Part shown: in pieces, positions 20,270-42,824 of the stretch
How positions within the stretch are numbered: position 1 is the first letter of the stretch
How the letters are laid out: each line of letters begins with the position of its first letter
Assembly: GCA_947644305.1 (NCBI GenBank)
Contig: CANRYS010000015.1
Location: forward strand, 21,446 to 85,445
Source: an uncultured Roseburia sp.
GTDB taxonomy: Bacteria > Bacillota > Clostridia > Lachnospirales > Lachnospiraceae
Direction: 5' to 3'
Length of the DNA: 64,000 nt
Made by a program: the position numbers and the translations under genes
The notes under the pieces: model-generated
What the model saw: the letters and a program-made list of their open reading frames with translations, nothing else
The model's database searches: none
What the model was told of the DNA's origin: nothing

Positions 20270-21431
20270 ACCACGCTAATTTACCTGTTTTTTCACTTGG
20301 GTATAGACAATTGACAAAGAAAAAGTGAAATCTGCCTTTCCCTTGATATTTTTCATAATTTTCTAAAAATAACTGTTGTACCATATCCATTTCTTCTTCC
20401 TCATCTATAACAAGATATACGTCAAACTCATTGTAATCCTTTTGTATGATTTGATATTGAATCACTGCCTGCTGAAGAGCTAAGTTGATTTTATCAATCA
20501 CACTGCAAAACAGGTCACTATGGCATTTTGTTCCATCGCTATTGTAAATCCAGTCGTTCTCTCTTGCCATGTTCAGTTCTATCATCGGTTCCTGACTTCC
20601 GCACTGACAATTGTGATCGTGAATTATTTTTCCTTTGTCCCCTATCTTGTAACGAATAAAAGGCATTACCTTGTTATGTAATGATGTAATACATATATCA
20701 TCTTCTTTTTCCCCTACCGTTTCAACATACACGTTTTCTGTCATTACATGCAAACCACCATAAGGGCATTCATATGCGATACTATTTACCTCATAACACC
20801 CATACTGATCCGCCACCTTACATCCAAAAAAATCTGCTATGAAAGATTTAGCCTCACCAGTAATCCGTTCCCCAGTAAGTTCAATGTACTTTAAGTCTGG
20901 TAATGGTGGAAGATTGTGTGCCTTTAACACCTTTGTAAAGAGCAGTATGATAGACGGCTGTACAATCATCCATTTGGGATTAAATTCCACCATCCTATCA
21001 TATATCTCCAATACCTTATTTTCCGATAGATCCATCTTATTGAAACCAATCCCATATTTTGTCTTTTCAATCTGGAGATCTTCCCCCTCTAAAATTTTAG
21101 TTGTAAAAAAGTAACACCTTTTATCTTTGGGTAATATCCCATAATATTTTTTCCTCTTGTTCCATAACGGCAACAATGATTTTATATTCTGGTCTTTTTT
21201 CCAAAGTATGTCGAGACAGTCTCCAGTAGATCCAGATGTCATAACATGCTCTAGTCTGTCTGACAAAAGATCCATCATGTATTCTGGTGAAAAAACGGAA
21301 TCTATGTTTTGTCGGACCATATATTTATCAACGATCGGATAATCTTTCCACAACATTATTTTCTCATGAAGCAAATCTTTGTAAAATGGAACTTGCTCAT
21401 AGGCATATTCGGCCATCTTTTCTTTTATCAT
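20238..21431 (-). CDS. phenylacetate-CoA ligase (PaaK)/CapK-like adenylate-forming enzyme
   Basis: VMTSGSTGDCLDILWKK, YGCYEVNSIAYECPYGGLHV, MPFIRYKIGDKG. Confidence 0.8.
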   Translation of the reverse strand: MIKEKMAEYAYEQVPFYKDLLHEKIMLWKDYPIVDKYMVRQNIDSVFSPEYMMDLLSDRLEHVMTSGSTGDCLDILWKKDQNIKSLLPLWNKRKKYYGILPKDKRCYFFTTKILEGEDLQIEKTKYGIGFNKMDLSENKVLEIYDRMVEFNPKWMIVQPSIILLFTKVLKAHNLPPLPDLKYIELTGERITGEAKSFIADFFGCKVADQYGCYEVNSIAYECPYGGLHVMTENVYVETVGEKEDDICITSLHNKVMPFIRYKIGDKGKIIHDHNCQCGSQEPMIELNMARENDWIYNSDGTKCHSDLFCSVIDKINLALQQAVIQYQIIQKDYNEFDVYLVIDEEEEMDMVQQLFLENYEKYQGKGRFHFFFVNCLYPSEKTGKLAWFVSNVEEKNL

Positions 21432-23028: not shown

Positions 23029-23925
23029 TTACATCCACTCGTTACTGGCAGCATACCATTGTTCTGTAAACTCTTTTCTTCCTACCGTTGCTGTAAACGG
23101 TTTTGTCAGGAAATCTTTTATTGTTTTCAGCACAGTACTGTAATCATCCGTTTTCGAGTCGATTTTACGAACAAAAGCTCTCCATTTCTTCTGCATGGCT
23201 TCGTCATCATCAAAAGCTGTAATTTGCCGAAACTGTTCAAGTGTAAAACTATGTCCACGATTTTCAAAAGTCTTTCTTAATGCTTCTGTTAGCGTTGCTC
23301 CATCGAAATCAAATTTATTTGCAAGGTAATATATATCATAGTAGTCTTTCATTCTGCTGGAGAACTCCATAAGGCTAAGGATAGCGTCAATCTTTTCGGC
23401 TACCGTTGTTTCAAGGGAATAAGTATTTACTGTTGGTGCAATAAAATCATCAAGCTGCGTCGGAATTTTTCGCTTTTCCTGTTTTGGTACAATGACATCG
23501 CCAACGCCGAAATCGATACTGAACGGAGTTCTTGTATTCTTAATGTGGGCAACTATCGATGCGCCAACACCCGCATATTTTTTTGTAACAGCAATAGGTG
23601 CAATATCCTTAATTTCAAAAGTAATAAAATCATTTCCTGCAGGAGTAACTATAATTTCTTCTAATACAGATTTTAACCGTTCGGGAGTGCCTGGTACTTT
23701 ACGAAGAAGAAAGTCAATATCTACCGTTACACGGCTGTCAAAATCGGTAACAGAATATATGAATAATCCACCTTTAAGTACAAGGTTTTCAGAGTATTTA
23801 GATTTTTCCAAACGACGCAGAAACTCCTCTTGGCAGAAAAGTTGCAGGCAAAGCTGATAGCTTCTTCCACTTTCTTTTGCCTTGTTTTTCAATTTTGCAA
23901 GCACAGATGCAGCAATATCAGCCAT
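23029..23925 (-). CDS. AbiEii/AbiGii-family nucleotidyltransferase toxin
   Basis: ENLVLKGGLFIYSVTDFDSRVTVDIDFLL nucleotidyltransferase motif; paired with 23918-24544. Confidence 0.85.
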   Translation of the reverse strand: MADIAASVLAKLKNKAKESGRSYQLCLQLFCQEEFLRRLEKSKYSENLVLKGGLFIYSVTDFDSRVTVDIDFLLRKVPGTPERLKSVLEEIIVTPAGNDFITFEIKDIAPIAVTKKYAGVGASIVAHIKNTRTPFSIDFGVGDVIVPKQEKRKIPTQLDDFIAPTVNTYSLETTVAEKIDAILSLMEFSSRMKDYYDIYYLANKFDFDGATLTEALRKTFENRGHSFTLEQFRQITAFDDDEAMQKKWRAFVRKIDSKTDDYSTVLKTIKDFLTKPFTATVGRKEFTEQWYAASNEWM

Positions 23926-24544
23926 TGAGTAACACCTCCATTACATTCATAACTTTTGTATAAAGTTTCATTTCTTTTGCGTACTTTGAGAGGTTCGCAA
24001 GATTTTTATTTTTATCGGTTGCGTATGCGTTGACAGCTTTATTAAAAGTTTCACTGTCAAGTTTTGTTCGATACTTAAAACAATCACATATTGTGCGTTC
24101 TCGGTCATATACAGCAAGCACTACGCCATTAAAATCATCTGTGGTTTTTCCCATTTGGAAAAATTGTTTTTGAATATAGTAAGCCTTTATCGGGAATTCC
24201 TCTATTTTTTTTATGGCACGGGACGCTGTTCTTGGCACAGCAACAGACCATTCACGAGGAGCAAAATCACTATATCCATAATGAAACAAGGCTGATTCCA
24301 CACAAATAATCCCTTGTGGAAGAAGCTCTCGTATCAACTGTTCCTCTGTAGTTTGATTGCTTTGTGGAAACTGATAAACACCTCGTCGGATTCTTTCGAT
24401 AAAACCTTCTTTACAAAGCGCAGCCACATCATAATTCTTTATACCTTCTGCCATAAAGTCAGCAGTTTTTGCAATGCCGCCTTTATTTTCGAGTACCCTT
24501 TTTACAATTTCTTTTTTATTCAAGTAAACACCAACTTCCTGCAT
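23918..24544 (-). CDS. AbiEi-family antitoxin / transcriptional regulator
   Basis: N-terminal winged helix (GIAKTADFMAEGIKNYDVAALCKEGFIERIRRGVYQ) and overlap with the toxin gene. Confidence 0.82.
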   Translation of the reverse strand: MQEVGVYLNKKEIVKRVLENKGGIAKTADFMAEGIKNYDVAALCKEGFIERIRRGVYQFPQSNQTTEEQLIRELLPQGIICVESALFHYGYSDFAPREWSVAVPRTASRAIKKIEEFPIKAYYIQKQFFQMGKTTDDFNGVVLAVYDRERTICDCFKYRTKLDSETFNKAVNAYATDKNKNLANLSKYAKEMKLYTKVMNVMEVLLNG

Positions 24545-25352: not shown

Positions 25353-26480
25353 TTAAACCTCACGTATTTGTATTTTCTCCCCATATTCCTCACTCGTTGC
25401 CCTTACGGCCCTCCGATACGCCTTCTTACAACCTTTGGGAACCTGAAACTTAATTCCCCTAAATGCAAAACTTGATTCGATCTTTGGCGGCTTTTTCCCT
25501 TTAAATACATATGTAATATTTTCTCTATACGGACTCCAAAAACTTTCAATTTTTTTAACGGATGCTGGAATGATAAACTTCTTTACGGGTTTGCCTGCAA
25601 AATTTGTCTTACTCAAATATGTTACTTTTTCAGGCACTATAAAAGTAGTATTTTTAACCGATGCGGCAACTAAACGCCCTGATTTTTTACTATATACACA
25701 ATCATTCGTTTCTGCATAATGTTTATTTTTCTTTGAAACATGAAATCTAACTACATCACTGAAAAAAAGTGATTGAAAACCTATCTTATTTACGGAAGCG
25801 GGAATATAAAAATCCGTTATACCAGAACCATAAAATATACTTTGATCATTTATAGTTTTTACTCCCTTTGGAATATTCAGCTTTTTCATAAATTTTACGG
25901 AGCCATGTGCAATTTTACCATCCTTTGACAAGAGCACTCCATTTTTAACCTTATATTTTTTGTTCTTAGAAGAAATTGAAAATTCTTTCCACTTTATTTC
26001 ACATAAATAGGATATATTTTTTGTAAGTCTACTTGGTATATTTATACACTTTCCATCCTGCACAAGACGAAAACAATTCGGAGTTATCGCAGTAACAGTG
26101 GACGGCAAAATAATTTGTTTAATATAAGCCACTTTATTAATTATTTTCTTCGGCCTAATTATCTCATCGTCTTCCGATCTATATATTCCAAAAATATTAT
26201 GTGTTTCAACAAAATCATCCTCTGGATCATATTTTGAGCCTAATTTTACAACTTTTTTTCCATTTATTTTAAGGGGTATTTTTAGTATACTAACATTTTT
26301 GCCCCCCAAAATGTCGATCTTCGTTATCCAGACCTCATTGGACGTAAGTTCCTGATATGTAAATTTGAAATTTCCAATGGTTTCTGAGTATTCCTCTTCT
26401 GTTTTAGCATCGCTGGTTATATTCAAATATAAAATGCACATGCAAAATAAACCCAATATACAATATTTTTTTAAATTCAT
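25353..26480 (-). CDS. secreted BspA-like leucine-rich repeat protein
   Basis: Signal peptide and BspA-type repeats (ITDFYIPASVNKIGFQSLFFSDVVRF; KKFIIPASVKKIESF). Confidence 0.72.
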   Translation of the reverse strand: MNLKKYCILGLFCMCILYLNITSDAKTEEEYSETIGNFKFTYQELTSNEVWITKIDILGGKNVSILKIPLKINGKKVVKLGSKYDPEDDFVETHNIFGIYRSEDDEIIRPKKIINKVAYIKQIILPSTVTAITPNCFRLVQDGKCINIPSRLTKNISYLCEIKWKEFSISSKNKKYKVKNGVLLSKDGKIAHGSVKFMKKLNIPKGVKTINDQSIFYGSGITDFYIPASVNKIGFQSLFFSDVVRFHVSKKNKHYAETNDCVYSKKSGRLVAASVKNTTFIVPEKVTYLSKTNFAGKPVKKFIIPASVKKIESFWSPYRENITYVFKGKKPPKIESSFAFRGIKFQVPKGCKKAYRRAVRATSEEYGEKIQIREV

Positions 26481-26492
26481 AATATCCGCCTC

Positions 26493-28577
26493 CTATTTTG
26501 ATGATGAAGAATATGAATAACTACTAACCCTGGGCGCAGCATTCAAATCCATCTCTGCAACATTCTTATATAAATTAAATATTTGATAATCAGTAGGTGC
26601 CTGTGGAAGTATTAAATCACTTACGCTTAGACTCTGCTTATTTATGTATCTTTCCATTATCTGCTTAGCAATCTTCTGGGCATCTTTATATCTATTATTG
26701 CATACTTCTGTACTATCCGCTCGTTCTACTCCATTTACCTTAGTACTATGTGTTATCAACTTACCCTGGTATCTCACACTGTGAGCATAGGTATCTGTCG
26801 CTGCATGTATCGCCATTCCCCATACAAATGCACGCCTAAAACCAACGGTTTCTTTTTGGGCCTGCGCTTTCTCATTATTTTTATTTATATCTTTTATCCT
26901 TATTAATTCATTTGCCCATACACTATGATTATCCATGTATTTAATATCATCTAACATATCTGATGCATTTTTATAATTTGGATTTGATGCTTTGCTTTGA
27001 TTCCCTTTCCCATAATAATATATTGCATCTCCCATTCGTGTAGCATAAATGACTGCTTTTACATAGTTTGTGTACTTATAATATCCATGCCACCATGGAT
27101 TCAGTGACATACGTGCAAAGATTCTATGTTCATAATCACCATATCTACTAGTATCCGGAAATCTGGCTCCATAACGAACATTAAAATAACTTGATGGAAC
27201 CATCACTTCATGATCATCCTGATACCAGCACCCCTCCACACAACCAGTATCTTCAAAGGTAGTAATTTTCTCTTTATTTTCTTCAATCTGTAAATCTTGT
27301 TCATTTTTTCCCCTTGAATTAATGTTCTTTTTAAACTCATCATAATGGCCCAGTGCGTACTCAGCATCAACTAACCCACTTCCATATGATTCAGCTTCTC
27401 CATACAGATTCGCACTTTCCTTTAACAGGTCTCTAACAAAATCCGCTGGTACACCTGGGTCCCTTTCCCAGATTAAAGAAGCTACTGCCGCCACCTGTGG
27501 CGCCGCCAGGCTTGTTCCAGAAGAAACCATTTCTGTTCCCAGAAACCCTGTTGTACGTACTAACTCCCCTGGCGCAACAATCTCTATCTCTTTTCCCTTT
27601 GCACTATGCTCTGCCACTTCCCCCTGCTTATCCACGGAACCCACAGCTAATACTTCTTCGTATGCCGCAGGATATTGAACGCCTTTATCCCCTGTATTTC
27701 CGGCAGCTGCCACAATTAATATTCCTTTCGCAGCAGCAGCTTCGACTGCTTCTTCCAAAGCTTTGGAGTATGTATTTAATCCAAAACTCATATTTATGAT
27801 GTTTACTTTCTGTTCTATCGCCAGATAAATCCCTTCGATAACACGACTTAACGGGGCCTGGTTTGCATCATCCAGAACACGGATAGAATAAATCTCCGCA
27901 TTGGGGTTGATTCCTGTTATTCCCTCCTCATTGTCTTCGGCGGCGATCAATCCTGCGACACTGGAACCATGTCCGCTTCCATCCATAAACATCTTCGTCA
28001 TTTCTTCTTCCCCTGAAACCAAACTTATTGAATATGCCAGTGATATGTCATTTCCCGCATCTACTCCTGAATCAAGAAGAGCTATTTTAATCTTCTTTTT
28101 TAACTTATTCTTTTTGATTTTATCTGCGTTTATCATCTGCACATTCCATTCGTGCTCAGACCTGTTTTTATTATTCACTTTTTCCTGTTTCTTATGGGGT
28201 TTCTTTTCATTTAATATAATTTTATTGTTTTGGGTACTGCCTTCTACAATGGCATCTTCCTCGATAAATTCTATGTTATCATCTACAGATAATTCTTTTA
28301 GCTCTGTTTGGGATAGTTCTAAAGAAATCATGTTATTCTCTTCCAGAAAATCCCGCTTATTATCATTGATCTTGTTGCTCTCTGAATAATTTTTTCTGAT
28401 TTTATCCAAAGGAGCTTCTGATTTAGTTCTTACGATATATTCCTGGTCTGCCAGGGGCTTCTTAGCACTTGCCGCCTTACACAATTCTGTGTTTATACCA
28501 AATCCAGAATAATACATCACCACCGCTGTCACCGTAATTACAACACATATTTTTCTTGCAATGTTCCTAATTTTCAT
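26493..28577 (-). CDS. secreted S8 subtilisin-like peptidase with C-terminal zinc-dependent phospholipase C-like domain
   Basis: Catalytic Asp (IALLDSGVDAG), His (GHGSSVAGLIAA), Ser (SSGTSLAAPQVAAVASL); C-terminal GMAIHAATDTYAHS resembles zinc-dependent phospholipase C. Internal Met start. Confidence 0.75.
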   Translation of the reverse strand: MKIRNIARKICVVITVTAVVMYYSGFGINTELCKAASAKKPLADQEYIVRTKSEAPLDKIRKNYSESNKINDNKRDFLEENNMISLELSQTELKELSVDDNIEFIEEDAIVEGSTQNNKIILNEKKPHKKQEKVNNKNRSEHEWNVQMINADKIKKNKLKKKIKIALLDSGVDAGNDISLAYSISLVSGEEEMTKMFMDGSGHGSSVAGLIAAEDNEEGITGINPNAEIYSIRVLDDANQAPLSRVIEGIYLAIEQKVNIINMSFGLNTYSKALEEAVEAAAAKGILIVAAAGNTGDKGVQYPAAYEEVLAVGSVDKQGEVAEHSAKGKEIEIVAPGELVRTTGFLGTEMVSSGTSLAAPQVAAVASLIWERDPGVPADFVRDLLKESANLYGEAESYGSGLVDAEYALGHYDEFKKNINSRGKNEQDLQIEENKEKITTFEDTGCVEGCWYQDDHEVMVPSSYFNVRYGARFPDTSRYGDYEHRIFARMSLNPWWHGYYKYTNYVKAVIYATRMGDAIYYYGKGNQSKASNPNYKNASDMLDDIKYMDNHSVWANELIRIKDINKNNEKAQAQKETVGFRRAFVWGMAIHAATDTYAHSVRYQGKLITHSTKVNGVERADSTEVCNNRYKDAQKIAKQIMERYINKQSLSVSDLILPQAPTDYQIFNLYKNVAEMDLNAAPRVSSYSYSSSSK

Positions 28578-28595
28578 AATATCTCCTCTTTTACA

Positions 28596-28727
28596 ATCTT
28601 CTCTAAAATATAATCCATAAACTGTCCTATAAAATCGTTTTGTCTGTATGATTGGACCGAGCTTCCTCACTAAACTCAAAAATCATCTCCGCAAGTTCTT
28701 TTTCTAACTGAGCAAAGTCCTTATTCA
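28596..28727 (-). pseudogene. internally deleted acyl carrier protein copy
   Basis: N-terminus MNKDFAQLEKELAEMIFEFSEEARSNHTD nearly identical to the ACP at 22691-22963; frame then stops, and the ACP C-terminal DNA (CAGTTTATGGATTATATTTTAGAGAAGAT) follows directly. The DSVSL region is lost. Confidence 0.82.
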
Positions 28728-28762: not shown

Positions 28763-29488
28763 TTATGTGCCCTCTTTCGCTTCCGGGACATAATACTTAT
28801 TGAAGAGTTCCTCTGCATATTCTTTTATGGTATTATTTTCCGTTGACCGATACACTCCACCCCAAAAGACTCTGATCAAACGTGAGTCATCAATCGTAAA
28901 ATCACAAACCAACTCTTCCTCTTCAGAGTATGCTTTAATCCAATAAGCCCAACCAGTATACATACAATTAGAGGTATTTACGTCTAAACGGTATCTGGCA
29001 GAGTTAAATTTCTGACGAAAGAGACTTATTTCTTCCGGAAGTATTATTGTGACCGTATTTCCCCATCTACCAATGGTAATTTTACTGACCTTCTCTGGAA
29101 TTGCCTCTGGTAATTTATCATATACACGTAATACAATGGTAAATTCTGAATTTTTCTTCTTCCCCTTTAACTTCCCTGTTAGTTCATATGTTCCTGACTT
29201 TTTTACTGTAAACCTGTTCTTTTTTATCTGTATCTGCTTACTTCGTGATTTCCACTTGATTTTGGAATTCGTAAATTTCTTCTTTTCTGACTTATCGTAA
29301 GAATCTGGCTTCCGTTTCATATTTATTACGTCCCGTATGGTATATTGTTTTTTACTCTGTATGGCATAATAATCCAAACGGTAGATCTCCACCTTTTTCT
29401 TTTTCGCTGCTATGATCTTGACATTTGAAACTTGAGACACTATGATCCCCAATAACAGAAAAATAGATATTACTTTCTTTCTTTTCAA
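28763..29488 (-). CDS. secreted Lys-rich Ig-like hypothetical protein, copy A (TTG start)
   Basis: Signal peptide; VKKSGTYELTGKLKGKKKNSEFTIVLRVYDKLP; paralogous to 29526-30248. Confidence 0.6.
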   Translation of the reverse strand: MKRKKVISIFLLLGIIVSQVSNVKIIAAKKKKVEIYRLDYYAIQSKKQYTIRDVINMKRKPDSYDKSEKKKFTNSKIKWKSRSKQIQIKKNRFTVKKSGTYELTGKLKGKKKNSEFTIVLRVYDKLPEAIPEKVSKITIGRWGNTVTIILPEEISLFRQKFNSARYRLDVNTSNCMYTGWAYWIKAYSEEEELVCDFTIDDSRLIRVFWGGVYRSTENNTIKEYAEELFNKYYVPEAKEGT

Positions 29489-29525: not shown

Positions 29526-30248
29526 TCATCCCTCTTTTGCTTCTGGGACATAATATTTATTGTAGAGATCTTCTACATATTTTTTTGTGGTATTATTTCC
29601 AGTTGAACGATATGACCCGCCCGGGGAAGTGCTGATCACACTTGAGTCCATAATCATAAAACCATAAACCGCTTCCTCTTCAGAAGAATAAGCCTTAATG
29701 CTATACTCCCAGCCACAATACATACGATTTGATAGATTTAAATCAAGACGATATCTGGCCAAACTAAATCTCTGTCGTAAAAGGTTTATTTCCTGAAGGT
29801 CTATAATAGTAATGGAATTCCCAAATCTGTTAATGGTAATTTTACTGACGTCATCCGGAATTTCTCCTGGTAATTTGTCATATACACGTAAGACAATAGT
29901 AAATTCTGAATCTTTTTTCTTCCCCTTTAACTTACCTGTTAGTTCATATATTCCTGACTTTTTTACTGTAAACCTGTTTTTTTTAATCCATATCTGCTTA
30001 CTACTTGGCGTCCACTTAATCCTGGAATCTGTAAATTTCTTCTTTTTTGCCTTATCATATGAATCCGACTTCCGTTTCATATTTATTACGTCCCGTATCG
30101 TATATTGTTTTTTGCTCTGTATGGCATAATAATTCAAACGGTAGAACTCAGTCTTTTTTTTCTTTGCAGCTGAGACCGGGGCATATGGAACTTCTGACAA
30201 TAGAATCCCCAACAAAAGCAGCATAGATATTATTTTCTTTCTTTTCAA
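29526..30248 (-). CDS. secreted Lys-rich Ig-like hypothetical protein, copy B (TTG start)
   Basis: Near full-length similarity to copy A; GGGAGG SD followed by TTG aligned with the copy A start. The longer 30557 ORF is an in-frame join with an upstream fragment. Confidence 0.6.
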   Translation of the reverse strand: MKRKKIISMLLLLGILLSEVPYAPVSAAKKKKTEFYRLNYYAIQSKKQYTIRDVINMKRKSDSYDKAKKKKFTDSRIKWTPSSKQIWIKKNRFTVKKSGIYELTGKLKGKKKDSEFTIVLRVYDKLPGEIPDDVSKITINRFGNSITIIDLQEINLLRQRFSLARYRLDLNLSNRMYCGWEYSIKAYSSEEEAVYGFMIMDSSVISTSPGGSYRSTGNNTTKKYVEDLYNKYYVPEAKEG

Positions 30249-30557
30249 AATAGTTTTCCTCCCTATTATTTTCCGATAAAATAAAATGTCACAAACTTTT
30301 AGACACATTCCAGTAGTTCCCGACGTATACACACTGAGTAGCTGATCTGACAGCCATAATGGAATACTTTCTGGCATTAGAACAGCGTCCGCATCGAATA
30401 CCAGCTCTTCTTTCCTGACGAGAGGGAGCTTGTCCCATTCTTCTCTTAAATTTAGCTGCTGTACTACAATATCCTTTTGCTCTGCCTTTCTTATATAAAA
30501 AGATGAATTTTGATACACGTGTTTTACAAAATCTTCTTGATTCTTTGTCAGTTGCAT
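30249..30557 (-). pseudogene. truncated N-terminus of a PaaK-like adenylate-forming enzyme
   Basis: NLREEWDKLPLVRKEELVFDADAVLMPESIPLWLSDQLLSVYTSGTTGMCLKV: N-terminal region including the phosphate-binding motif, then abrupt loss of homology. Confidence 0.7.
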
Positions 30558-30567
30558 CTGTACTCTC

Positions 30568-31143
30568 CTATCTGCCTCTCCTATTCACTCCCACTCCGAT
30601 CCACATGATCACCAGCATCATCCCGATTCCCAGCACGATGCATCTGGCCGCCCCTACAGCTCCTAGCAGCCGCAGAATCACAAAAATGGCTGTCTCTGTC
30701 CCATACACGCCAAAGGCCAATTTTCTATATTTGATAACCTCATACTCCTCCAAAGTTTTATTTTCATGCTCCACCGGAGCAAATCTCCACAGACTGAGTC
30801 CTGTGATCACCAGGAGGAAAATCTGCACCCATAAGAATCCAGGAGTCAATTTGTACAAAAGTAATATTCCCAGGAACAACAACCAGGTCTTGACAGCACA
30901 CTGCATCGGTGTCCTGGCATGATAACCGCCAGCATAAATGCGCAGAGGCATAAAGACTAAAAGGATCACCACTCCCTGCCAGAACAGGTTCATAAACAGA
31001 CCTGTACACAACAAAATGACGATCTCTATCAAAGTGCGGAGCCCCTGAACGATACCAAAAGACACCAGGGGAGCATCTTCTTTGGGAAATGCCTGGCTGG
31101 CGAGCATCCTACCCACCAGCCATCCAGCAAACCTTTCCAACAC
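30568..31143 (-). CDS. agrB: AgrB-family accessory gene regulator / AIP-processing peptidase
   Basis: Polytopic membrane protein with RIYAGGYHARTPMQCAVKTWLLF typical of AgrB. Confidence 0.9.
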   Translation of the reverse strand: MLERFAGWLVGRMLASQAFPKEDAPLVSFGIVQGLRTLIEIVILLCTGLFMNLFWQGVVILLVFMPLRIYAGGYHARTPMQCAVKTWLLFLGILLLYKLTPGFLWVQIFLLVITGLSLWRFAPVEHENKTLEEYEVIKYRKLAFGVYGTETAIFVILRLLGAVGAARCIVLGIGMMLVIMWIGVGVNRRGR

Positions 31144-31146
31144 CGC

Positions 31147-31290
31147 CTATCTCCTGCGGAGCCGTTCTGCCCCTTTCGGCAGTTCTGGCTGATGCATCAA
31201 AAACTGACAAGCAGAATTCACTGCACCTGAAGTAACTTTCATCGAAAGTCCTGCTACCTTTGCTGCCAACCTTTTCTTTGCGTTTTTCAT
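31147..31290 (-). CDS. agrD: cyclic lactone autoinducer precursor peptide AgrD
   Basis: Hand-translated 47-aa ORF MKNAKKRLAAKVAGLSMKVTSGAVNSACQFLMHQPELPKGAERLRRR; AGGAGG SD 8 nt upstream; directly upstream of agrB; contains C-x4-x2-P-x-x-P signature. Below the ORF track length cut-off. Confidence 0.88.
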   Translation of the reverse strand: MKNAKKRLAAKVAGLSMKVTSGAVNSACQFLMHQPELPKGAERLRRR

Positions 31291-31304
31291 ATGTCATTCC
31301 TCCT

Positions 31305-31396
31305 AAAAAAAGATGTGATATAAGTTCATTATATCACATCTTTTCGCGGTTTTGGGCGTTTTGGCGTGAACGACACAAACTTGCGACGAACGACAC
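31305..31396 (-). promoter_or_regulatory. agrD promoter region: LytTR-like direct repeats, -10 and dyad
   Basis: Direct repeats GAACGACAC at 31368-31376 and 31388-31396 (20-bp period); minus-strand TATAAT inside the inverted repeat AAGATGTGATATA-agttcat-TATATCACATCTT. Confidence 0.6.
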
Positions 31397-31402: not shown

Positions 31403-32671
31403 CTACAGAAAAAGGCAGATCTTCACTTCAAAAATTCCGTTTTTTGTGTTGATCTCAAAGGTTCCATCATACTTTTTTACGATCTTCCCCACCTTCCGTA
31501 ATCCATAACCATGATTGGTTTTATCTTCTTTCGTGGTGCGAAAATTTCCTCCCGTCCTTTCCCTTTTCCCCTTATATGGATTTCTGATCCAGATAAATAA
31601 TCGCTCCCCCTTACTACTGTAACGAACACCTATCTCAATTCTCTTTTGTCTGATATCACGTACTGCCTCCATACTGTTATCCATCAGATTTGCCAGAATC
31701 AAGTTCATATCATAGACAGACAGTTCCAGCTCCTCCGGGACCTTAAGCTCCATATCCACTGATATATCGGCAGCCACTGCCTCCTGAAGTTTATAATTCA
31801 ATATACCATCCAGTACAGAGTTTCCTGTGTCCGCATATTTCTGACTCTGCAGGATATTTTCCTGGATCTCTCCCAGATATGCCGCAAGATGTTCCGTCTC
31901 ATGCTGCTCGTTCAAATAAGAAATCATGGAAATATGCCTGATAAAATCATGTCTCTGCTCTCTTACCTGTTCCACCACCTGATTCATCAGCTCCAGCTGG
32001 TTTCTCTGATACTGATTCTGAAGTTCCAGCGTATCCTTTTCCACCTGCAGCCGAAAGCTGTGAAGCTGCCGGTCATACAGGTAAATAACAAAGATATTGA
32101 TGGCAAAGAGCACAGCGGCACAGGCTCCCACTGACTGAAGTCTTAGTCCTGGCTGCTGATAAAATAAGATAAAAAGATAGACCGATGAGATTGGCAGCGC
32201 CACAGAAATGATCCAATAAGAAGCCGGCACCTCCTCTCCCTCCCGAATATTTTTGAGATTTCGGATGAATAGTACAATCATGAACATCACGACCGGAAGA
32301 CTGATCGTCCCAAATACTGAAAAATACTCTGTGGACGAAAAAATGTCCAAATTAATATATCCAGATAGAAGCGCCACAACACACTCTGCCAGAGTAAAAA
32401 TCACAAAAACAAAAACTCCTGATAAAATCCGCTTTTTCCAGCTCCCCATATAAATGATAGTGATGAGCAGTTCCCCACCAAAGGAACAGACCAGATTTAC
32501 CATAGGAATGCCCAAAAGCAGATGGGGAAGTGTCAACATGAGATACAGTCCTGCATAGGCACAGAGTTCCTCTTTCCCCCCGAACCGGCTCTTTTTAAGA
32601 AAGCACTGCATGAGCAAATACACCTCATAGGTCTGAAAAGCAGAAGATATCAGGAAGATCATTATGGACAT
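31403..32671 (-). CDS. agrC: AgrC-like sensor histidine kinase (GHKL)
   Basis: N-terminal TM array, REQRHDFIRHISMISYL, NLILANLMDNSMEAV, GYGLRKVGKIVKKYDG. Confidence 0.85.
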   Translation of the reverse strand: MSIMIFLISSAFQTYEVYLLMQCFLKKSRFGGKEELCAYAGLYLMLTLPHLLLGIPMVNLVCSFGGELLITIIYMGSWKKRILSGVFVFVIFTLAECVVALLSGYINLDIFSSTEYFSVFGTISLPVVMFMIVLFIRNLKNIREGEEVPASYWIISVALPISSVYLFILFYQQPGLRLQSVGACAAVLFAINIFVIYLYDRQLHSFRLQVEKDTLELQNQYQRNQLELMNQVVEQVREQRHDFIRHISMISYLNEQHETEHLAAYLGEIQENILQSQKYADTGNSVLDGILNYKLQEAVAADISVDMELKVPEELELSVYDMNLILANLMDNSMEAVRDIRQKRIEIGVRYSSKGERLFIWIRNPYKGKRERTGGNFRTTKEDKTNHGYGLRKVGKIVKKYDGTFEINTKNGIFEVKICLFL

Positions 32672-33391
32672 TTACTTCACCTCCATATCATAATCCACCC
32701 ATGCCTTTTTTATTTTTTCTACATACCGTCTCCCCACAGGAATCTCCGCACCATTTTCCATAAACAAACAATGATCCAGATAGCGGACCACATAACTTAA
32801 GTTCACCACATGAGACCGATGGCACTGGCACAAAGAATAATCGGCATATTTTTTCCCAAGATCCTGGAGGTTTTCCCTTATCCGAATTCTCTTATTGTCT
32901 TTGGTCATTACCTCCAGCATTTTATCCACTGACTTAACATACATGACATCCCTTAGCGCAATCCACTTGACGATTCCATCTTCTTTATACCTCAGCACCT
33001 GTTTGCCATCGCTGCTTCTCCTGACCACCTTATCCAAGTCCGCAAAGATCTCCTCGCGATGCAGTGGTTTATGGTGAAAATTCAATGGCTCCAGAGCAAA
33101 CAGATGCCTGCAGTATTTTGTTTTACCCGATATATAGATAATTTGTACCGCTTCATTTTTCATATTATCCCGAATAAAATGTCCCAGCTCCACACCGGAA
33201 CCCTCTGGAAACTCTATATCCAGAAAAATGACATCATAACAGGACCCTCCTTCTATCTCATTTAAAAGAAGCTCTACCGTATAAAATATATGTATTTCCA
33301 TTCTGACTTTTTGTGTTCTTCGGTAAATCTTAAGCCACCCTTCAAGCCGCGAACAGCATCCCTGATCATCATCGCATATTGCTAGCCGCAT
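32672..33391 (-). CDS. agrA: AgrA-like LytTR response regulator
   Basis: REC domain (MRLAICDDDQGCC...YDVIFLDIEFPEGSG) and LytTR domain (SLCQCHRSHVVNLSYV). Confidence 0.88.
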   Translation of the reverse strand: MRLAICDDDQGCCSRLEGWLKIYRRTQKVRMEIHIFYTVELLLNEIEGGSCYDVIFLDIEFPEGSGVELGHFIRDNMKNEAVQIIYISGKTKYCRHLFALEPLNFHHKPLHREEIFADLDKVVRRSSDGKQVLRYKEDGIVKWIALRDVMYVKSVDKMLEVMTKDNKRIRIRENLQDLGKKYADYSLCQCHRSHVVNLSYVVRYLDHCLFMENGAEIPVGRRYVEKIKKAWVDYDMEVK

Positions 33392-33573: not shown

Positions 33574-33990
33574 TTATTTCCTTAGATCATTCTGCCTGTC
33601 TCCTGACTCTGAACCCTCTACCTTTTTCTCTATAGCATTCAACTGGTGGATGACCTCCGCGAGCATTTGAATCACGCGGCTATCACTGTCTGCCACATAT
33701 TCCTGCTCCACAGGCATACTTGCCCCGCCTATGATATAGTTCAAATCATAGCTTAATTTTCTGTGTAAAATATTTGCCTTATCCGCTGAAAGCGAATTGA
33801 TACCGTACTCGATCCGGCGGTAGCTGTCTTCCTCAAGATTTAAAATTCCTGCGATATAGCGTACCGTATGACCATTTCTGATTTGGATCGTCCTCAGTCT
33901 TTTTCCCACACCGCAATTACACGGATTCTTTTGTTTTTTCTCTTTTCTTTTATCTGATTTCGCCATAAGCATTCCCTTACTTTCTTTCAT
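33574..33990 (-). CDS. XRE-family helix-turn-helix regulator
   Basis: GKRLRTIQIRNGHTVRYIAGILNLEEDSYRRIEYGINSLSADKANILHRKLSYDLNYIIGG. Confidence 0.8.
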   Translation of the reverse strand: MKESKGMLMAKSDKRKEKKQKNPCNCGVGKRLRTIQIRNGHTVRYIAGILNLEEDSYRRIEYGINSLSADKANILHRKLSYDLNYIIGGASMPVEQEYVADSDSRVIQMLAEVIHQLNAIEKKVEGSESGDRQNDLRK

Positions 33991-34875: not shown

Positions 34876-34903
34876 CCTTCTTGTCAAGAGAAATTGAAAA
34901 AAA

Positions 34904-36472
34904 TCACAGATCCCTCCTTTGTTCCTGAAATCCAAACTGAATAACCACTTTATCACCCGGATGCACGTAAATTACCTGTATTAGTTTTTCTACTACATCA
35001 CGTGTAAGTCCCGTAATACCATCCGATTCGGAAAGCACATCCAGAAATGTCATGTCTATCTCTTGAAAATTACTTTGTTGATTTTGCAATTTTCTTTGAT
35101 ATGTATTTTCACTTTTTTCTATCTTTATTTGATTTTCCTGTTTCTTTTTGATAAACTGTTCCCGCTCTATTTGCTCGGATATATATGCCTTATACAAAAA
35201 GAAATTCTCTTGTTTTACTTTCTGGATATAATACTGCAAGTTTTTCAAATCCTGTACTTCTTTGTCCTTTATTTGTTTTTTATGGGAGGTCTTTTCTTTG
35301 TATAAAGTGTGAAAATTTTGAACTAGTTTTACCTGTTTGCGCAGGACTGTTAAAATAGAATTTATCAATTGTCGTTCATTGATATGATGACTCAAACAGT
35401 TATCATGATGTTGCGAATAATAATACTTGCAATAATAACTAGGATTTCGTCTTGGTCTGCGTACCAGGTTTTTTCTGCAACCACCACATTGAACAAAACC
35501 TTTAATTGGCGAATCCAAACTGCCCTTTATATGCATATCTTTTACACATTTTTTTTTCTTATATTCTTGAACTTGATAGAACAATTCCTTGGAAATAATC
35601 GGCTCGTGGGTATTTTCCACAATCACCCATTCTTTCTTTGGTTTCTGTCTTACGTGAACACTAGATATTTCTTCTACTTCCACTTTACCTGATACCATAT
35701 CACCAATATACATTCGATTTCTCAAAATTCGCCCTACAATTGCTCCAGACCAAGTCCCCTGGGTTTTCTGATATTTCCATGAATAATTTAGTCCTTTCTT
35801 TCGCATATATTCTGCTGGGGTTGGTATATGGGCTTTTTCCAGTTTTCTGGCCACCTCTTCCTTGTTACCACAAAACAAAAAAAATGAAAATATCTTTCGT
35901 ACAACCTCCGCTGCTTCTTCATCAACGATAAGGTGCCCCTGCTTTTCTGGGTCTTTTCGATAACCATATGGCGCAAATGTTGCTTGATGTTTGCCAATCT
36001 TCCTGTTTTGAGCTTGAACAAAACGAACTTTTTGTGATGTATCCACACTGTGAAAATCATTTACTAAGTTTTGAAAAGAAAAGCGAAGATCCGGTGTGTC
36101 ACCTATGCCAAGTTCTGTGCTGTCAAAATTGTCATTAATTGAGATAAACCGAACATTCATAAAGGGAAAAATTTTCTCGATATATTCACCTGCCTGTATA
36201 TAATCTCTGGCAAACCGAGAGAAATCTTTAACAATAATACAGCGGACTTTGTTTTTCTTTACATCCGCTAACAAGCGCTTTATGGCCGGTCTTTCAAAGT
36301 TTTTGCCGCTATACCCGTCATCTACATATTCACACACAAAATACTTTTTTAAGTCCGTATGTTCATCAATGAACTTGACCGCCATTTCCCGCTGATTACG
36401 AATACTGTTACTCTCATCCAAACAATCATCGTCTTGATGTGATAATCTCAAATAGATTGCCAGTATTTCACT
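34904..36472 (-). CDS. large serine recombinase (third of three)
   Basis: ILAIYLRLSHQDDDCLDESNSIRNQREM; recombinase and zinc-ribbon (CGGCRKNLVRRPRRNPSYYC) domains; internal Met start. Confidence 0.92.
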   Translation of the reverse strand, partial: SEILAIYLRLSHQDDDCLDESNSIRNQREMAVKFIDEHTDLKKYFVCEYVDDGYSGKNFERPAIKRLLADVKKNKVRCIIVKDFSRFARDYIQAGEYIEKIFPFMNVRFISINDNFDSTELGIGDTPDLRFSFQNLVNDFHSVDTSQKVRFVQAQNRKIGKHQATFAPYGYRKDPEKQGHLIVDEEAAEVVRKIFSFFLFCGNKEEVARKLEKAHIPTPAEYMRKKGLNYSWKYQKTQGTWSGAIVGRILRNRMYIGDMVSGKVEVEEISSVHVRQKPKKEWVIVENTHEPIISKELFYQVQEYKKKKCVKDMHIKGSLDSPIKGFVQCGGCRKNLVRRPRRNPSYYCKYYYSQHHDNCLSHHINERQLINSILTVLRKQVKLVQNFHTLYKEKTSHKKQIKDKEVQDLKNLQYYIQKVKQENFFLYKAYISEQIEREQFIKKKQENQIKIEKSENTYQRKLQNQQSNFQEIDMTFLDVLSESDGITGLTRDVVEKLIQVIYVHPGDKVVIQFGFQEQRRDL

Positions 36473-38078
36473 CATACTGCTTTCCTCCATTTTCCATAAA
36501 TCTTTGTATATTCTCAATCTCATCTTGATACAGTAACTTCAACACTACTTTCTTTCCAGGATAAACTTCGATACGTTTAATCATACTTACCAGAGTCCGA
36601 ACGCTGGGGAGAGAAGCTTTCTGATAACGGCTCCATTCATACATGATTCTCCGATATTGTTTCTCAAAGCGGCAGATTTTACTGTTCTCTTTTTGGAATT
36701 GTATGATATTTTCTTTCTCGTTTACTATCAAATCCAACTGCCTGTCTCGAAATAATACCACCTTCTCCCGATTATATCCTTCTAAATGGTATTTCAATAA
36801 AGCATTTCTGCGTTCCTCCTCTAATAATTCTATTTTTTGCATACATTTAGCCATATCTTTTTGTATTAAATCGGTTTTTACCTGAAATATTTTCCTGCTG
36901 TTTTTACGAATCTGTTCACGCAGATTTTTAAGCGCTTTTGACTGCGTCACAACAAAACGATTGATAATATCGCACAATTCTTTCTCTTTCATTGTTTCCT
37001 TGTGATCGCAGCGTCTAATCGCCTGTCGGTGAAGCGAACAAGCATAGCCCTTTTGAACGGCTTTCTGTTTGTTCACATAAGTGGTTACTCCAACTCTGGT
37101 CATAGGAGAACCACAGACTCCACAATACAACACATCAGAAAAAATATTTTCAGCCTTGCATTTTGTGGGCCTTTGCTTCTCTTGCTTTGTGGATTCCAAT
37201 ATCCTATGAACTCTTTCATACAATTCCTCATCAATTAGCGCTGGGATTGTCCCATCGACCATCGTTCCAACATACACCTTATTTTGGAGCATTTTCTTGA
37301 CTGTAGAATAAATCCATAAACTTTTTCTCTCGTCCTGGTTATAAAGCATACCCGTTTTTCGATACCTTTCCGGTGAAGAAATCTGCCTTTCGTTTAATTC
37401 ATTACAAATGGAAGGAATCTTTTCTCCTTTACCATATCGCTCAAACATTTCTTTGACAATAGGAGCCGTACTTTCATCGAGTTCATAACACCCCTTTCCC
37501 ATACGATATCCATAAGGAATCCTAGACATACGATAAAAATCTCCCTTTTGTCGCTTTGCTCGTAGCGAAGTCTTTACTTTTTTTGAAATATCTTTGGCGT
37601 ACATATCATGCATAAGATTTTTTAACGGAATCAAAAGTTGTTCCTTATCACAATCAGGATTATTACTGTCATAATGATCCAGTACGGATATAAACCGAAC
37701 TCCAAGAAATGGGAAAATCCTCTCCAGATAATCACCAGCTTCTGTGTAGTTTCTGCCAAACCGGGATAGGTCTTTTACAATAATACAATTCACCTCACCA
37801 TTTCTGACAGCCTTCATCATTTTTTCAAATGCTGGTCGTTCAAAATTTATTCCAGATTTTCCATCATCTACAAACTCAGCTATTACCACCATATCATTTT
37901 GGCAAGTTATATAGTCATCTAATATTTTGCGCTGGTTCACAATCGAATCACTTTCCGTGTAAATACTTCCATAAGACAACCGCATATAGAGAGCCGTCTG
38001 ATACATCATCTTATCTGAATCTTGCTTCCTGTTTAAGCGGTTAGCCGGTCTTGCCATCACACACCCCCCTCTTTTCAC
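36468..38078 (-). CDS. large serine recombinase (second of three)
   Basis: TALYMRLSYGSIYTESDSIVNQRKIL; CGVCGSPMTRVG...YACSLH zinc ribbon; coiled coil. Confidence 0.92.
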   Translation of the reverse strand: MKRGGCVMARPANRLNRKQDSDKMMYQTALYMRLSYGSIYTESDSIVNQRKILDDYITCQNDMVVIAEFVDDGKSGINFERPAFEKMMKAVRNGEVNCIIVKDLSRFGRNYTEAGDYLERIFPFLGVRFISVLDHYDSNNPDCDKEQLLIPLKNLMHDMYAKDISKKVKTSLRAKRQKGDFYRMSRIPYGYRMGKGCYELDESTAPIVKEMFERYGKGEKIPSICNELNERQISSPERYRKTGMLYNQDERKSLWIYSTVKKMLQNKVYVGTMVDGTIPALIDEELYERVHRILESTKQEKQRPTKCKAENIFSDVLYCGVCGSPMTRVGVTTYVNKQKAVQKGYACSLHRQAIRRCDHKETMKEKELCDIINRFVVTQSKALKNLREQIRKNSRKIFQVKTDLIQKDMAKCMQKIELLEEERRNALLKYHLEGYNREKVVLFRDRQLDLIVNEKENIIQFQKENSKICRFEKQYRRIMYEWSRYQKASLPSVRTLVSMIKRIEVYPGKKVVLKLLYQDEIENIQRFMENGGKQYE

Positions 38079-39709
38079 TGCATGACAGTGTGAGCCATTT
38101 CGAATAAATCCTCAAATTGAAAAACAATCTTTACCTTCGATTGTTTTTTAATAATAATTTTATCTACTAGCGAAGCTAACATAATTCGAGAAACAGTCTT
38201 AACACTCCTATTAGCCTTGACTTCCTGAATCCAAGCTCCCGCTTCCTTTTCATTTTTAAAATGAGTTTGCATTTCTTCACGAATAAATCTAATTTCCTTT
38301 TTAACTCTAAAAATAGAATCCTCATAATACTTTGTATATTCCTGATATTCTTCATCCGTTATAAGTTTTTCCTTTAAATCACGGTATAAAAAAGACTGCA
38401 TTTTTGAGCATCTTTCCAATTCTATATTTTTTGTATTTATCTTAGATGAATACTCTAGAAAGTGCTCGGACACATAATTGGAGGGCGAATAATTTGCTTC
38501 CAATAACTTATCTATCTCGCAAACCGCTACCATATATTGTTTTATCGTGGATGACACAATTACATTCAACTCCTCTTCCTTAATTTTATGTGAGCTGCAT
38601 CCCTTTTGGCGGTTATATGTAGAACAAATGTAGGATACCATTTCTCTTCCTTTGTACCTGTAAACTCTCCGTATCATTGGTTTCTTGCATTCATTGCAAA
38701 ACAAAAAGCCAGAAAAAGGAGAGACTTTTTCAGCATTTAACGAACGTCGGGTATCCCTTTTGGAGAGTTCTTTTACCCGCTCAAAGACTTCTTTAGAAAT
38801 AATCGCCTCATGATGATTCGGGTATATATCCCACTCTTCTCTAGGTTTGTCTATTACTTTCTTTACTTTATAATTAACTTTTGTTCTCTTGCCCTGCTCC
38901 AAAGTTCCAGTATAAATCGGGTTATTCAAGATCGCATACACGGTACTGTCACACCATTTTGGTCTAGAATTCCCGCTGAATCCAGTCTTAAAATTTATTC
39001 CTTGAAGCCTTTTGTGCTCCATCGGGGAGGGAATTCCCATTTGATTCAGTTTGTCCACTATTGAGTATACGTTGATGCCATCAAGTTTCCAATTGAAAAT
39101 TTTTCTAACGGTGCCTGCTGCACTCTCATCAATGATGATTTCATTCTTGTTCTCTGGATTTTTCATATATCCATAGGCAACATAAGAACCGACATATAAT
39201 CCACTTTTTCGCATAGCACTCTGGCTGCTTCTCACTTTTTGAGATATATCACGGCAATAGTTATCATTTACAAAATTTTTTACAGGAAGCAGTAAGTGGT
39301 AATCATTCGATGTCGCAGTAAGAGAATCAAAATGGTCCAATACAGACACAAAACGAACACCCAAACTAGGAAAAATTTTCTGAATATATCTTCCCGCCTC
39401 TATATACTCCCGCCCAAAACGAGATAAATCTTTTACAATGACCATATTGACTTTGCCATCCAGAATATCTTGCTTCATACGCAGAAATTCTGGACGATCA
39501 AAATTAACGCCACTAAAACCATCATCTGTATAATAATCGTATATGGATACATGGGGCACTTTGCTTAAAAATTCTTGAATAACACGTATCTGATTTGAGA
39601 TACTGTTACTTACACATTTACCAATATTTTCAGATATATCACCATCCTCTTTTGACAAGCGAAGATAGACAGCCACAGTAAATTTAACCGTCTTAGTTGC
39701 ATCTTTCAT
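38075..39709 (-). CDS. large serine recombinase (first of three)
   Basis: VAVYLRLSKEDGDISENIGKCVSNSISNQIRVI; CNECKKPMIRRVYRYKGREMVSYIC zinc ribbon. Confidence 0.92.
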   Translation of the reverse strand: MKDATKTVKFTVAVYLRLSKEDGDISENIGKCVSNSISNQIRVIQEFLSKVPHVSIYDYYTDDGFSGVNFDRPEFLRMKQDILDGKVNMVIVKDLSRFGREYIEAGRYIQKIFPSLGVRFVSVLDHFDSLTATSNDYHLLLPVKNFVNDNYCRDISQKVRSSQSAMRKSGLYVGSYVAYGYMKNPENKNEIIIDESAAGTVRKIFNWKLDGINVYSIVDKLNQMGIPSPMEHKRLQGINFKTGFSGNSRPKWCDSTVYAILNNPIYTGTLEQGKRTKVNYKVKKVIDKPREEWDIYPNHHEAIISKEVFERVKELSKRDTRRSLNAEKVSPFSGFLFCNECKKPMIRRVYRYKGREMVSYICSTYNRQKGCSSHKIKEEELNVIVSSTIKQYMVAVCEIDKLLEANYSPSNYVSEHFLEYSSKINTKNIELERCSKMQSFLYRDLKEKLITDEEYQEYTKYYEDSIFRVKKEIRFIREEMQTHFKNEKEAGAWIQEVKANRSVKTVSRIMLASLVDKIIIKKQSKVKIVFQFEDLFEMAHTVMQ

Positions 39710-39772
39710 TATACCTCACTCCATAATTTTTTACCTCTCATACATCAAGAACGCACTTTATATACACTTTTT

Positions 39773-40042
39773 TCAAATAAGCGCTTCTTTCGCTGCCTGT
39801 CGTATCAGTTCACCTAACAATGTTTCTAGTGATTCGCCATTCTCATTGAACTCCACCTTAATCATAAATTTTCCGTGTCTGAACAGGTAAGGATTTTTAA
39901 TTTGCTCAAGGTAACTTTCCAAACGCTTCATCTGACTTAGTTTTTCATCAATTACCACATCATTAATATCCACCAGTTCCTCCAAAGTGACTGAATCCAT
40001 ATCAACCTGTTTTAATTTATCTAACTGATCCTGTGTAAACAT
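39773..40042 (-). CDS. small DUF6870-like mobile-element protein
   Basis: LEELVDINDVVIDEKLSQMKRLESYLEQIKNPYLFRHGKFMIKVEFNENGESLETLLGELI resembles a family recalled next to Clostridial recombinase modules; start at internal MFTQDQ. Confidence 0.6.
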   Translation of the reverse strand: MFTQDQLDKLKQVDMDSVTLEELVDINDVVIDEKLSQMKRLESYLEQIKNPYLFRHGKFMIKVEFNENGESLETLLGELIRQAAKEALI

Positions 40043-40149
40043 CGATACCCTCCTATTTGTCTTATATTCTTTCTTAATCTTATTACGTAAAAATATCAAA
40101 TATGCAACAAGTCCATATATTATTATCATATTTGTTAAACGCAAAAAAA

Positions 40150-40185
40150 TAAAAAAGACCGGAAAAACCGATCTCTTTTATCTTT
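40150..40185 (-). terminator. Rho-independent terminator after prs-like gene
   Basis: Minus strand GATCGG-TTTTT-CCGGTC followed by TTTTTTATTTTTTT. Confidence 0.65.
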
Positions 40186-40215
40186 CTTTCATGCCTCCCT
40201 ATACTTCTACCATTA

Positions 40216-41334
40216 TTATTTATCACTAAATAACTTCCTTATTTTTTTATGTGGATCCAAAATTTTTGCGATAGACTCTCCCTGATTAATACAATAAATA
40301 TAATAGGAAATATATTTAGTTAAATCTACCTCTTTATACCAGGCTGCCTCTTTTATTTCTTTTCGTCTGTACGACGCATTCGTAATAAATACCGCCGAAA
40401 TAAGTCCATCATTATAAGCCTTATCAAAAATCTCAATTCCTTCTGTAAATAAAGCAAAAGTCGCTGAAACAAACACTCGTTTAGCACCCATCTCTTTCAT
40501 TTTTTTTGCCACATCTAGAATTGTTTCTCCAGAGCATATAATATCATCAACCGTTATTACATCTTTTCCTTTCACATCAGGTCCAATATATTTATGTTCA
40601 TCTACAACATACTTGCCGTTTTTCATTTCACTTTTTGAACGTCTTTTATAAAAAATACCCATATCCAAGTCAAGCTCGTCAGAATAAGTAAAATTGCGGT
40701 TTGTTGCCCCAAAATCAGGAGAAACAAACACAGTATGTTCCTTATCAAATACAATATCGTCATAATTCTTTACAATTGTCTTAATAACCTGATAAACAGG
40801 AAATACATCATCAAATCCTACAAACGGAATTGCGTTTTGAACTTTACTATCATGCACATCAAAAGCCATAATATTGTCGACGTTTATATTTTCAAGTTCT
40901 CGGAGTGCCACAGCACAATCCAAAGATTCTCTGGCAATTCTACGATCCTGACGTCCTGAATATAACAAAGGAGAAATAACATTTACTCTAGCTGCTTTGC
41001 CTCCGATGGCTGATATTGTCCTTTTCAAATTTTGATAATGTTCATCCGGCGACATCATGACTTCTTGTCCAAACATTTTATATTTGCAGCTATAGTTACC
41101 AACATCAACTAAAATAAAGACATCTGTACCCCTCACTGTTTCCTCCAAGACAGCTTTTGCATCGCCTGTCGTAAAACGTAAAATATCAGACTTTACAATT
41201 CTACAACTTCCTATACTATAAATCTCTTCTAGATAATGTTGCACCTTAGATACTAATTCTTCTGTTCCATACAGAGGAATTAGCGAAACCGAATAAACGT
41301 TCTTTTTTTCATTCTTTGTGTTATTGTTGCACAT
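40216..41334 (-). CDS. divergent ribose-phosphate pyrophosphokinase (PRPP synthetase-like)
   Basis: SPLLYSGRQDRR, DNIMAFDVHD, GKDVITVDDIICSGETILDVAKKMKEMGAKRVFVSATFALF (PRPP-binding loop). Confidence 0.85.
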   Translation of the reverse strand: MCNNNTKNEKKNVYSVSLIPLYGTEELVSKVQHYLEEIYSIGSCRIVKSDILRFTTGDAKAVLEETVRGTDVFILVDVGNYSCKYKMFGQEVMMSPDEHYQNLKRTISAIGGKAARVNVISPLLYSGRQDRRIARESLDCAVALRELENINVDNIMAFDVHDSKVQNAIPFVGFDDVFPVYQVIKTIVKNYDDIVFDKEHTVFVSPDFGATNRNFTYSDELDLDMGIFYKRRSKSEMKNGKYVVDEHKYIGPDVKGKDVITVDDIICSGETILDVAKKMKEMGAKRVFVSATFALFTEGIEIFDKAYNDGLISAVFITNASYRRKEIKEAAWYKEVDLTKYISYYIYCINQGESIAKILDPHKKIRKLFSDK

Positions 41335-41496
41335 AAAATAATCCCCTCTTGTTATAAAGTTGTAATGTTAATTATAGTCCTTTTCTAAGGACGGTATTCC
41401 AATAACAAATTTAAAACAATTGTAACATAAAAAATTTATAGTATCAAGTTTGCTTATATCTTTTTACATCCAACAATATGCTTATTTGGCCATCTC

Positions 41497-42678: not shown

Positions 42679-42784
42679 CTCTTTCTTTTTTTTAATTATT
42701 TACCTTTTTCTCTTTTGCTACAAGCCTTTATTGGTATAAAGAACTTGAACAATTCACCATATTTCTAGTCTTTTTTTCATAAAA

Positions 42785-42812: not shown

Positions 42813-42824
42813 CAATATAACTTA

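What the first reader, a model, noticed from the sequence alone, without database searches (positions are those of the whole stretch)
31147..31290. Unlisted 47-aa AgrD pheromone precursor with a novel-looking AIP sequence
MKNAKKRLAAKVAGLSMKVTSGAVNSACQFLMHQPELPKGAERLRRR has an amphipathic leader, a Cys for thiolactone formation and a PELPKG tail. It has a strong SD and lies just upstream of agrB, with agrC and agrA further upstream. It is shorter than the ORF track cut-off. If the Cys plus four residues form the ring, CQFLM is a plausible macrocycle core.
Basis: partly seen in the sequence, partly recalled or inferred. Interest (0 to 1): 0.7.

Follow-up and report, generated by a model that had tools for sequence, protein, structure and literature searches.

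The report
Gut bacterial agr pheromone and regulon
The short gene is a real precursor for a small ring-shaped quorum-sensing peptide in a gut Lachnospiraceae-type bacterium; the family is well known, but a very specific control sequence in front of it recurs before protease, surface-protein, export and apparent phage-defence genes, which points to what this signal switches on.

Summary
A 47-aa ORF at 31147-31290 (minus strand) lies three bases before agrB, with agrC and agrA upstream (order agrA-agrC-agrD-agrB). It passes NCBI's AgrD model (36.1 bits, cut-off 19). Orthologues in five congeneric genomes keep frame, spacing and tail while the ring varies (CQFLM, CQLFM, CQLLM; CLYLM, CVFFM further out). 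In 25 of 25 distant relatives exactly four residues separate the Cys from a [H/Y/N/G][Q/E]P motif, so a five-residue Cys-to-Met thiolactone is the best reading. The "amphipathic leader" was not above chance. This is a new member of an ordinary family.

Beyond the finding: a 28-bp direct-repeat box before agrDB occurs in exactly the six of 39 congeneric genomes carrying this AgrA/AgrB, and in one of 396 other family genomes, again on a contig with an agrB. A -10 hexamer sits exactly 34 bp downstream (45 bp for one gene family) at 30 of 31 sites. It precedes secreted subtilase/CBM2 and BspA-type LRR genes, a small peptide with transporter genes, a C39/type-I exporter, a dCTP-deaminase-type anti-phage gene, HD-CE/HSP90-like and integrase genes. 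Likely mechanism: AIP to AgrC to AgrA to box. Regulation is inferred, not measured.

The parts
31147..31290 (-). agrD, 47-aa AIP precursor
   Evidence: TIGR04223 36.1 bits vs cut-off 19; orthologues in five genomes
31195..31209 (-). codons 28-32, predicted five-residue thiolactone ring C-Q-F-L-M
   Evidence: C-x4-[HYNG][QE]P spacing constant in 25 of 25 printed family homologues while the residues vary; cleavage and cyclisation not shown
31299..31304 (-). AGGAGG Shine-Dalgarno of agrD
   Evidence: sequence; conserved in orthologues
31307..31345 (-). 17-bp perfect hairpin followed by a T run; its 5' arm contains the -10 hexamer
   Evidence: dG -20.9 kcal/mol, z -7.5 against shuffles; stem kept in the orthologous agrD promoters while the loop varies
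31328..31333 (-). predicted -10 hexamer TATAAT of the agrDB promoter
   Evidence: 34 bp after the box, the same spacing as at most other box sites
31368..31396 (-). predicted AgrA box GTGTCGTTCGTCGCAAGTTTGTGTCGTTC (two 9-bp direct repeats, period 20)
30568..31143 (-). agrB, processing/export endopeptidase
   Evidence: PF04647 121.6 bits; His75 and Cys82 seven residues apart, hydrophobic segments
31403..32671 (-). agrC-type receptor histidine kinase
   Evidence: HATPase_c_5/GHKL 75.6 bits; five hydrophobic segments in the N-terminal half, RHD His at 241
32672..33391 (-). agrA-type response regulator
   Evidence: LytTR 65.6 bits and Response_reg 31.2 bits; Asp58
26493..28679 (-). S8 subtilase on the same strand downstream of agrB, possible operon cargo
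   Evidence: PF00082 165 bits; subtilases also follow agrB in L007 and L008 (by sequence); co-transcription not shown
25353..26480 (-). BspA-type LRR_5 secreted protein downstream of the subtilase
   Evidence: PF13306 41 bits; the S8 plus LRR_5 pairing recurs behind a box elsewhere in this genome (L031)

Best explanation
The ORF is the pheromone precursor of a complete peptide quorum-sensing system. AgrB cuts AgrD after Met32 and joins that carboxyl to the thiol of Cys28, giving a five-residue thiolactone (CQFLM) with an N-terminal tail of unknown length. The secreted peptide binds the membrane part of AgrC, AgrC phosphorylates AgrA, and AgrA binds the 28-bp direct-repeat box centred about 60 bp upstream of the start, activating agrDB (positive feedback) and a set of operons with the same box: secreted proteases, surface LRR proteins, small peptide and exporter loci and some conflict or defence genes. 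A hairpin overlapping the -10 probably ends transcripts arriving from agrAC, keeping agrDB under the box-controlled promoter. Shown by sequence: the gene set, AgrD family membership, ring-spacing conservation, and the box with its fixed -10 spacing and its co-occurrence with this AgrA. Inferred: processing, receptor binding, AgrA binding, direction of regulation and the terminator role.
For: AgrD model hit; AgrB, AgrC, AgrA domains and order; orthologues with conserved frame and tail but changed ring; Cys-to-[HYNG][QE]P spacing constant in 25 of 25. Box: in 6 of 39 genus genomes, exactly those with AgrB at 82% or more and AgrA at 92% or more identity, reversed control 0 everywhere; in only one further genome of 396 in the family sample, on a contig with an agrB. 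Of 31 sites, 25 have TATAAT and 2 TAAAAT exactly 34 bp after the second repeat, 3 have TATAAT at 45 bp; among eight spacer-distinct promoter groups, TATAAT is at 34 in five, shuffle mean 0.012. A box-like sequence is partly kept at the same place in front of the agrD of G016, whose AgrA is 57% identical. In S. aureus the AgrA repeats are centred near -60 (PMC4227749), as here if the start is about 7 nt after the -10.
Against: No expression, binding or peptide data. The six genomes are from one genus and may be one clade, so their co-occurrence is not six independent events. The genome has five agrB genes, so the signal and the box could involve another pair. One of 31 sites has no -10 at either spacing. 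AgrC sensor and kinase halves differ about equally between orthologues, so there is no sign of rapid receptor divergence tracking the ring.
Confidence: 0.85

Rival explanations
1. AgrD and AgrB make the peptide, but the box is bound by another regulator that also drives agrDB, so the box operons are not the quorum regulon.
For: Binding was not tested. The genome has several LytTR-type and agr-type systems, and an XRE-like protein (33574-33990) sits next to agrA.
Against: The direct-repeat form and position fit LytTR regulators, and the box co-occurs exactly with this AgrA. AgrA is the regulator encoded beside the agrDB box.
Confidence: 0.1
2. The peptide is mainly an inhibitor or antimicrobial aimed at neighbours rather than a self-signal.
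For: AIPs can cross-inhibit other species (general knowledge), and a C. thermocellum AgrD-type pentapeptide slows growth (PMC5322536).
Against: A complete receptor and regulator pair is encoded with it, and its own promoter carries the box.
Confidence: 0.05
3. The product is not the five-residue thiolactone but a longer or differently cut ring.
For: The N-terminal cut is not predictable here and no peptide was measured.
Against: Constant Cys-x4-[HYNG][QE]P spacing in homologues; [quoted passage not shown] perfringens signal (PMC7492741).
Confidence: 0.08
4. The ORF is a chance reading frame.
For: It is only 47 codons long.
Against: Family model hit, conserved frame and Shine-Dalgarno, dN below dS in every orthologue pair.
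Confidence: 0.01

Closest known systems
C. difficile agr2 locus (agrACDB) of strain R20291
   Same: Same gene order agrA-agrC-agrD-agrB, LytTR regulator, 46-aa AgrD (PMC3754575)
   Different: There agrACDB is suggested to be a single transcript; here a box, a -10 and a terminator-like hairpin lie between agrC and agrD, and the predicted regulon differs.
C. perfringens Agr-like system (AgrBD with VirSR)
   Same: Five-residue thiolactone ring signal (PMC7492741); an HQPE-type motif after the ring is recalled from memory
   Different: There the sensor pair (VirSR) is encoded apart (from memory); here agrC and agrA are adjacent.
S. aureus agr (agrBDCA, P2/P3)
   Same: AgrB/AgrD/AgrC/AgrA set; AgrA direct repeats centred near -60 (PMC4227749)
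   Different: Opposite gene order, different box sequence with a conserved spacer and period 20; an RNAIII-like transcript was not looked for.
AgrD family TIGR04223 in genomes of the same bacterial family
   Same: Leader, Cys plus four residues, [HY]QP[EK].P, basic C-terminal tail
   Different: Ring residues QFLM; Met at ring position 5 was seen only in this genus among the precursors read.

Membership tests
AgrD pheromone precursors (TIGR04223) | Score above the curated model cut-off | tested here: met
   36.1 bits against 19
AgrD pheromone precursors (TIGR04223) | Cys (or Ser) followed by a short ring segment and a conserved proline-containing recognition motif | tested here: met
   CQFLM-HQPELP; same spacing in 25 of 25 homologues
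AgrD pheromone precursors (TIGR04223) | Encoded next to agrB | tested here: met
   agrB starts 3 bases after the stop
AgrD pheromone precursors (TIGR04223) | Amphipathic N-terminal leader | tested here: inconclusive
   Hydrophobic moment not above shuffles
AgrD pheromone precursors (TIGR04223) | Processed to a thiolactone or lactone peptide | not testable with these tools
   Needs mass spectrometry
Complete agr quorum-sensing system | AgrB with catalytic His and Cys | tested here: met
   PF04647 hit; His75 and Cys82, seven apart as in S. aureus (the comparison is from memory)
Complete agr quorum-sensing system | Membrane GHKL histidine kinase and LytTR response regulator encoded with it | tested here: met
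Complete agr quorum-sensing system | Direct-repeat AgrA site upstream of its own promoter (autoinduction) | tested here: met
   Sequence site present and conserved; binding not tested
Complete agr quorum-sensing system | Density-dependent induction by its own peptide | not testable with these tools
   Needs experiment

The most novel reading that the evidence does not exclude
In this gut genus an agr-type pheromone directly controls, through a near-invariant 28-bp box, a dispersed regulon of inter-bacterial and anti-phage genes (subtilases, surface LRR proteins, small peptide and exporter loci, a dCTP-deaminase defence gene, HD-CE/HSP90-like genes), with promoter cassettes copied in front of new cargo in different species.
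Probability: 0.45. Interest if true: 0.6.

Novelty: new member of a known kind. Interest (0 to 1): 0.42.

Why it matters
Agr loci are common in genomes of this gut family, but the literature searches made here found no experimental work on them. A box this specific turns an anonymous agr locus into a testable regulon and suggests that the signal governs competition and possibly phage defence. Quorum control of anti-phage systems is known elsewhere, for example CBASS in Vibrio cholerae (PMC10653837); agr control of a dCTP-deaminase defence gene would be a new instance as far as these searches go.

Tried and rejected
A chance ORF was rejected. Amphipathic leader: not above shuffles. Receptor divergence tracking the ring: AgrC halves 1-200 and 201-422 differ about equally, so no support. 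The basic RLRRR tail looked unusual at first but basic tails are common in the family's AgrDs. The generic sigma-70 and terminator scan found nothing in the intergenic region: no good -35 is present, which would fit an activated promoter, and the hairpin did not meet that scan's criteria; it is judged on fold energy instead. Pfam and NCBIfam gave no family for the small peptide in L055/L154 or for L150, so a bacteriocin-like reading of them is only a resemblance recalled from memory. A PDB search with AgrA gave only weak generic hits to response regulators.

Full report
Observation. AGGAGG lies at 31299-31304. agrB follows after three bases (30568-31143, PF04647, 121.6 bits); a GHKL kinase (31403-32671) and a LytTR response regulator (32672-33391) lie upstream on the same strand. 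NCBIfam TIGR04223 (AgrD) scores 36.1 bits, cut-off 19; the narrower staphylococcal Pfam model is not reached.

Relatives. The genome (G000, 3.19 Mb) has five agrB genes and three AgrD model hits above cut-off. AgrB orthologues at 82-90% identity occur in gut assemblies of the same genus, whose titles name Lachnoclostridium, Roseburia or Eubacterium. Their AgrDs have the same length and position and an almost invariant tail HQPELPKGA[ED]RLRRR, with rings CQFLM (L006, L009), CQLFM (L007) and CQLLM (L008, L010); dN is below dS in every pair. More distant systems in the genus carry CLYLM (G016) and CVFFM (G020). Among 397 genomes sampled from the family, 36 have an AgrD match to the query; in all 25 precursors that could be read, Cys is followed by four variable residues and then [H/Y/N/G][Q/E]P. 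This is the signature of a pheromone precursor with a five-residue ring ending at Met32. A five-residue thiolactone is the likely natural signal in C. perfringens (PMC7492741), and a five-residue AgrD-type lactone was confirmed by mass spectrometry in C. thermocellum (PMC5322536). The N-terminal cut cannot be predicted here.

The box. Between agrC and agrD, at 31368-31396, lies GTGTCGTTC-GTCGCAAGTTT-GTGTCGTTC, a direct repeat of period 20 followed 34 bp later by TATAAT (31328-31333). The exact repeat occurs at one other place in the genome. With the pattern RTGTCGTTYNTCGCAARTTYRTGTCGTT (up to two mismatches) there are 31 sites, all in six of 39 genus genomes; these are exactly the genomes with this AgrB (82% or more) and this AgrA (92% or more). 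The reversed control pattern gives none. In 396 other genomes sampled from the family there is one with hits, G362, where a tandem array of the box lies on a contig that also carries an agrB-like gene by sequence. Of the 31 sites, 25 have TATAAT and 2 TAAAAT exactly 34 bp after the second repeat, three have TATAAT at 45 bp (one helical turn further), and one has neither. Because many sites are orthologous, the sites were grouped by spacer similarity: of eight groups five have TATAAT at 34, one TAAAAT at 34, one TATAAT at 45; shuffles average 0.012 groups. If transcription starts about 7 nt after the -10, the box centre is near -61; S. aureus AgrA repeats are centred near -60 (PMC4227749). A partly conserved box is at the same place in G016, whose AgrA is 57% identical.

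Putative regulon. In the window's genome: agrDB; a 1240-aa secreted subtilase with CBM2 domains followed by two BspA-type LRR proteins (L031); an LRR_5 protein followed by a small secreted peptide and ABC transporter genes (L055); a 1080-aa HD-CE/HSP90-like ATPase (L145); a tyrosine integrase-family gene (L056, L155); a 228-aa putative secreted protein (L146). In relatives: the same subtilase/LRR operon (L051, L053); a different secreted protein with an LRR-like partner (L052); a C39-peptidase/HlyB-type exporter (L156); an acyl-carrier-protein/AMP-ligase cluster (L153) like window 18698-21431; a dCTP-deaminase anti-phage homologue (L149, NF041025 E 6.9e-89, 298.7 bits, below its 400-bit cut-off; PADLOC dCTPase E 1.7e-101); and a locus with MkoA-like helicase pieces behind a truncated HD-CE-like gene (L147). 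The agrDB operon itself may read into S8 and LRR_5 genes in the window (26493-28679, 25353-26480), and subtilase-like genes also follow agrB in L007 and L008; co-transcription was not tested.

Hairpin. A 17-bp perfect stem with a five-base loop and T run at 31307-31345 (dG -20.9 kcal/mol, z -7.5) has the -10 in its 5' arm and is kept in the orthologous agrD promoters. Read-through from agrAC would form it and probably terminate; transcripts starting at the promoter would lack the 5' arm. The terminator function is inference.

Limits. The six genomes may be a single clade, so co-occurrence is weaker than the count suggests; the fixed -10 spacing across different genes, and the near absence of the box from 396 other genomes, carry more weight. 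No binding, expression or peptide data exist. The leader's amphipathicity is not above chance and AgrC shows no faster sensor divergence.

Verdict. The added value is the box, which makes a concrete regulon prediction centred on secreted and inter-bacterial functions.

Noticed in passing
window 34876-42833: The spore-maturation-type gene spmA is split by a 7.96-kb insert with three large serine recombinases, a DUF6870 protein, a PRPP-synthetase-like and a SAM-synthetase gene; both junctions share a GG dinucleotide, and spmA is intact in L006-L010. It resembles a skin-like element in a sporulation gene.
   Followed up: partly
window 29526-30557: Chimeric ORF directly downstream of agrB: the first ~85 residues resemble PaaK-type AMP ligases, then it joins a secreted lysine-rich protein that looks paralogous to 28763-29488. 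A fuller ligase-like gene is at 20238-21431.
   Followed up: no
G000 contigs C2, C4, C21, C18 (L002-L005): Four further agrB genes in the same genome, most with AgrC- or LytTR-like neighbours; e.g. a possible AgrD ending CFWGEPEYPTEG beside the C21 agrB.
   Followed up: partly
G092 (same family): One genome gave ten AgrD matches in the family search, an unusually large set of pheromone precursors.
   Followed up: no
window 33574-33990 and 16497-16835: Two small XRE-like regulators that look alike; the first, between spmB and agrA, is kept in most relatives.
   Followed up: no
L162 7427-7624 region (G362:C102): Tandem array of TGTCGTTYGTCGCAA-type half-sites about 6 kb from an agrB-like and a C39-peptidase-like gene in another genus.
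   Followed up: partly
window 23029-24544: Gene pair that by eye looks like an AbiEi/AbiEii-type toxin-antitoxin pair; not searched against any library.
   Followed up: no
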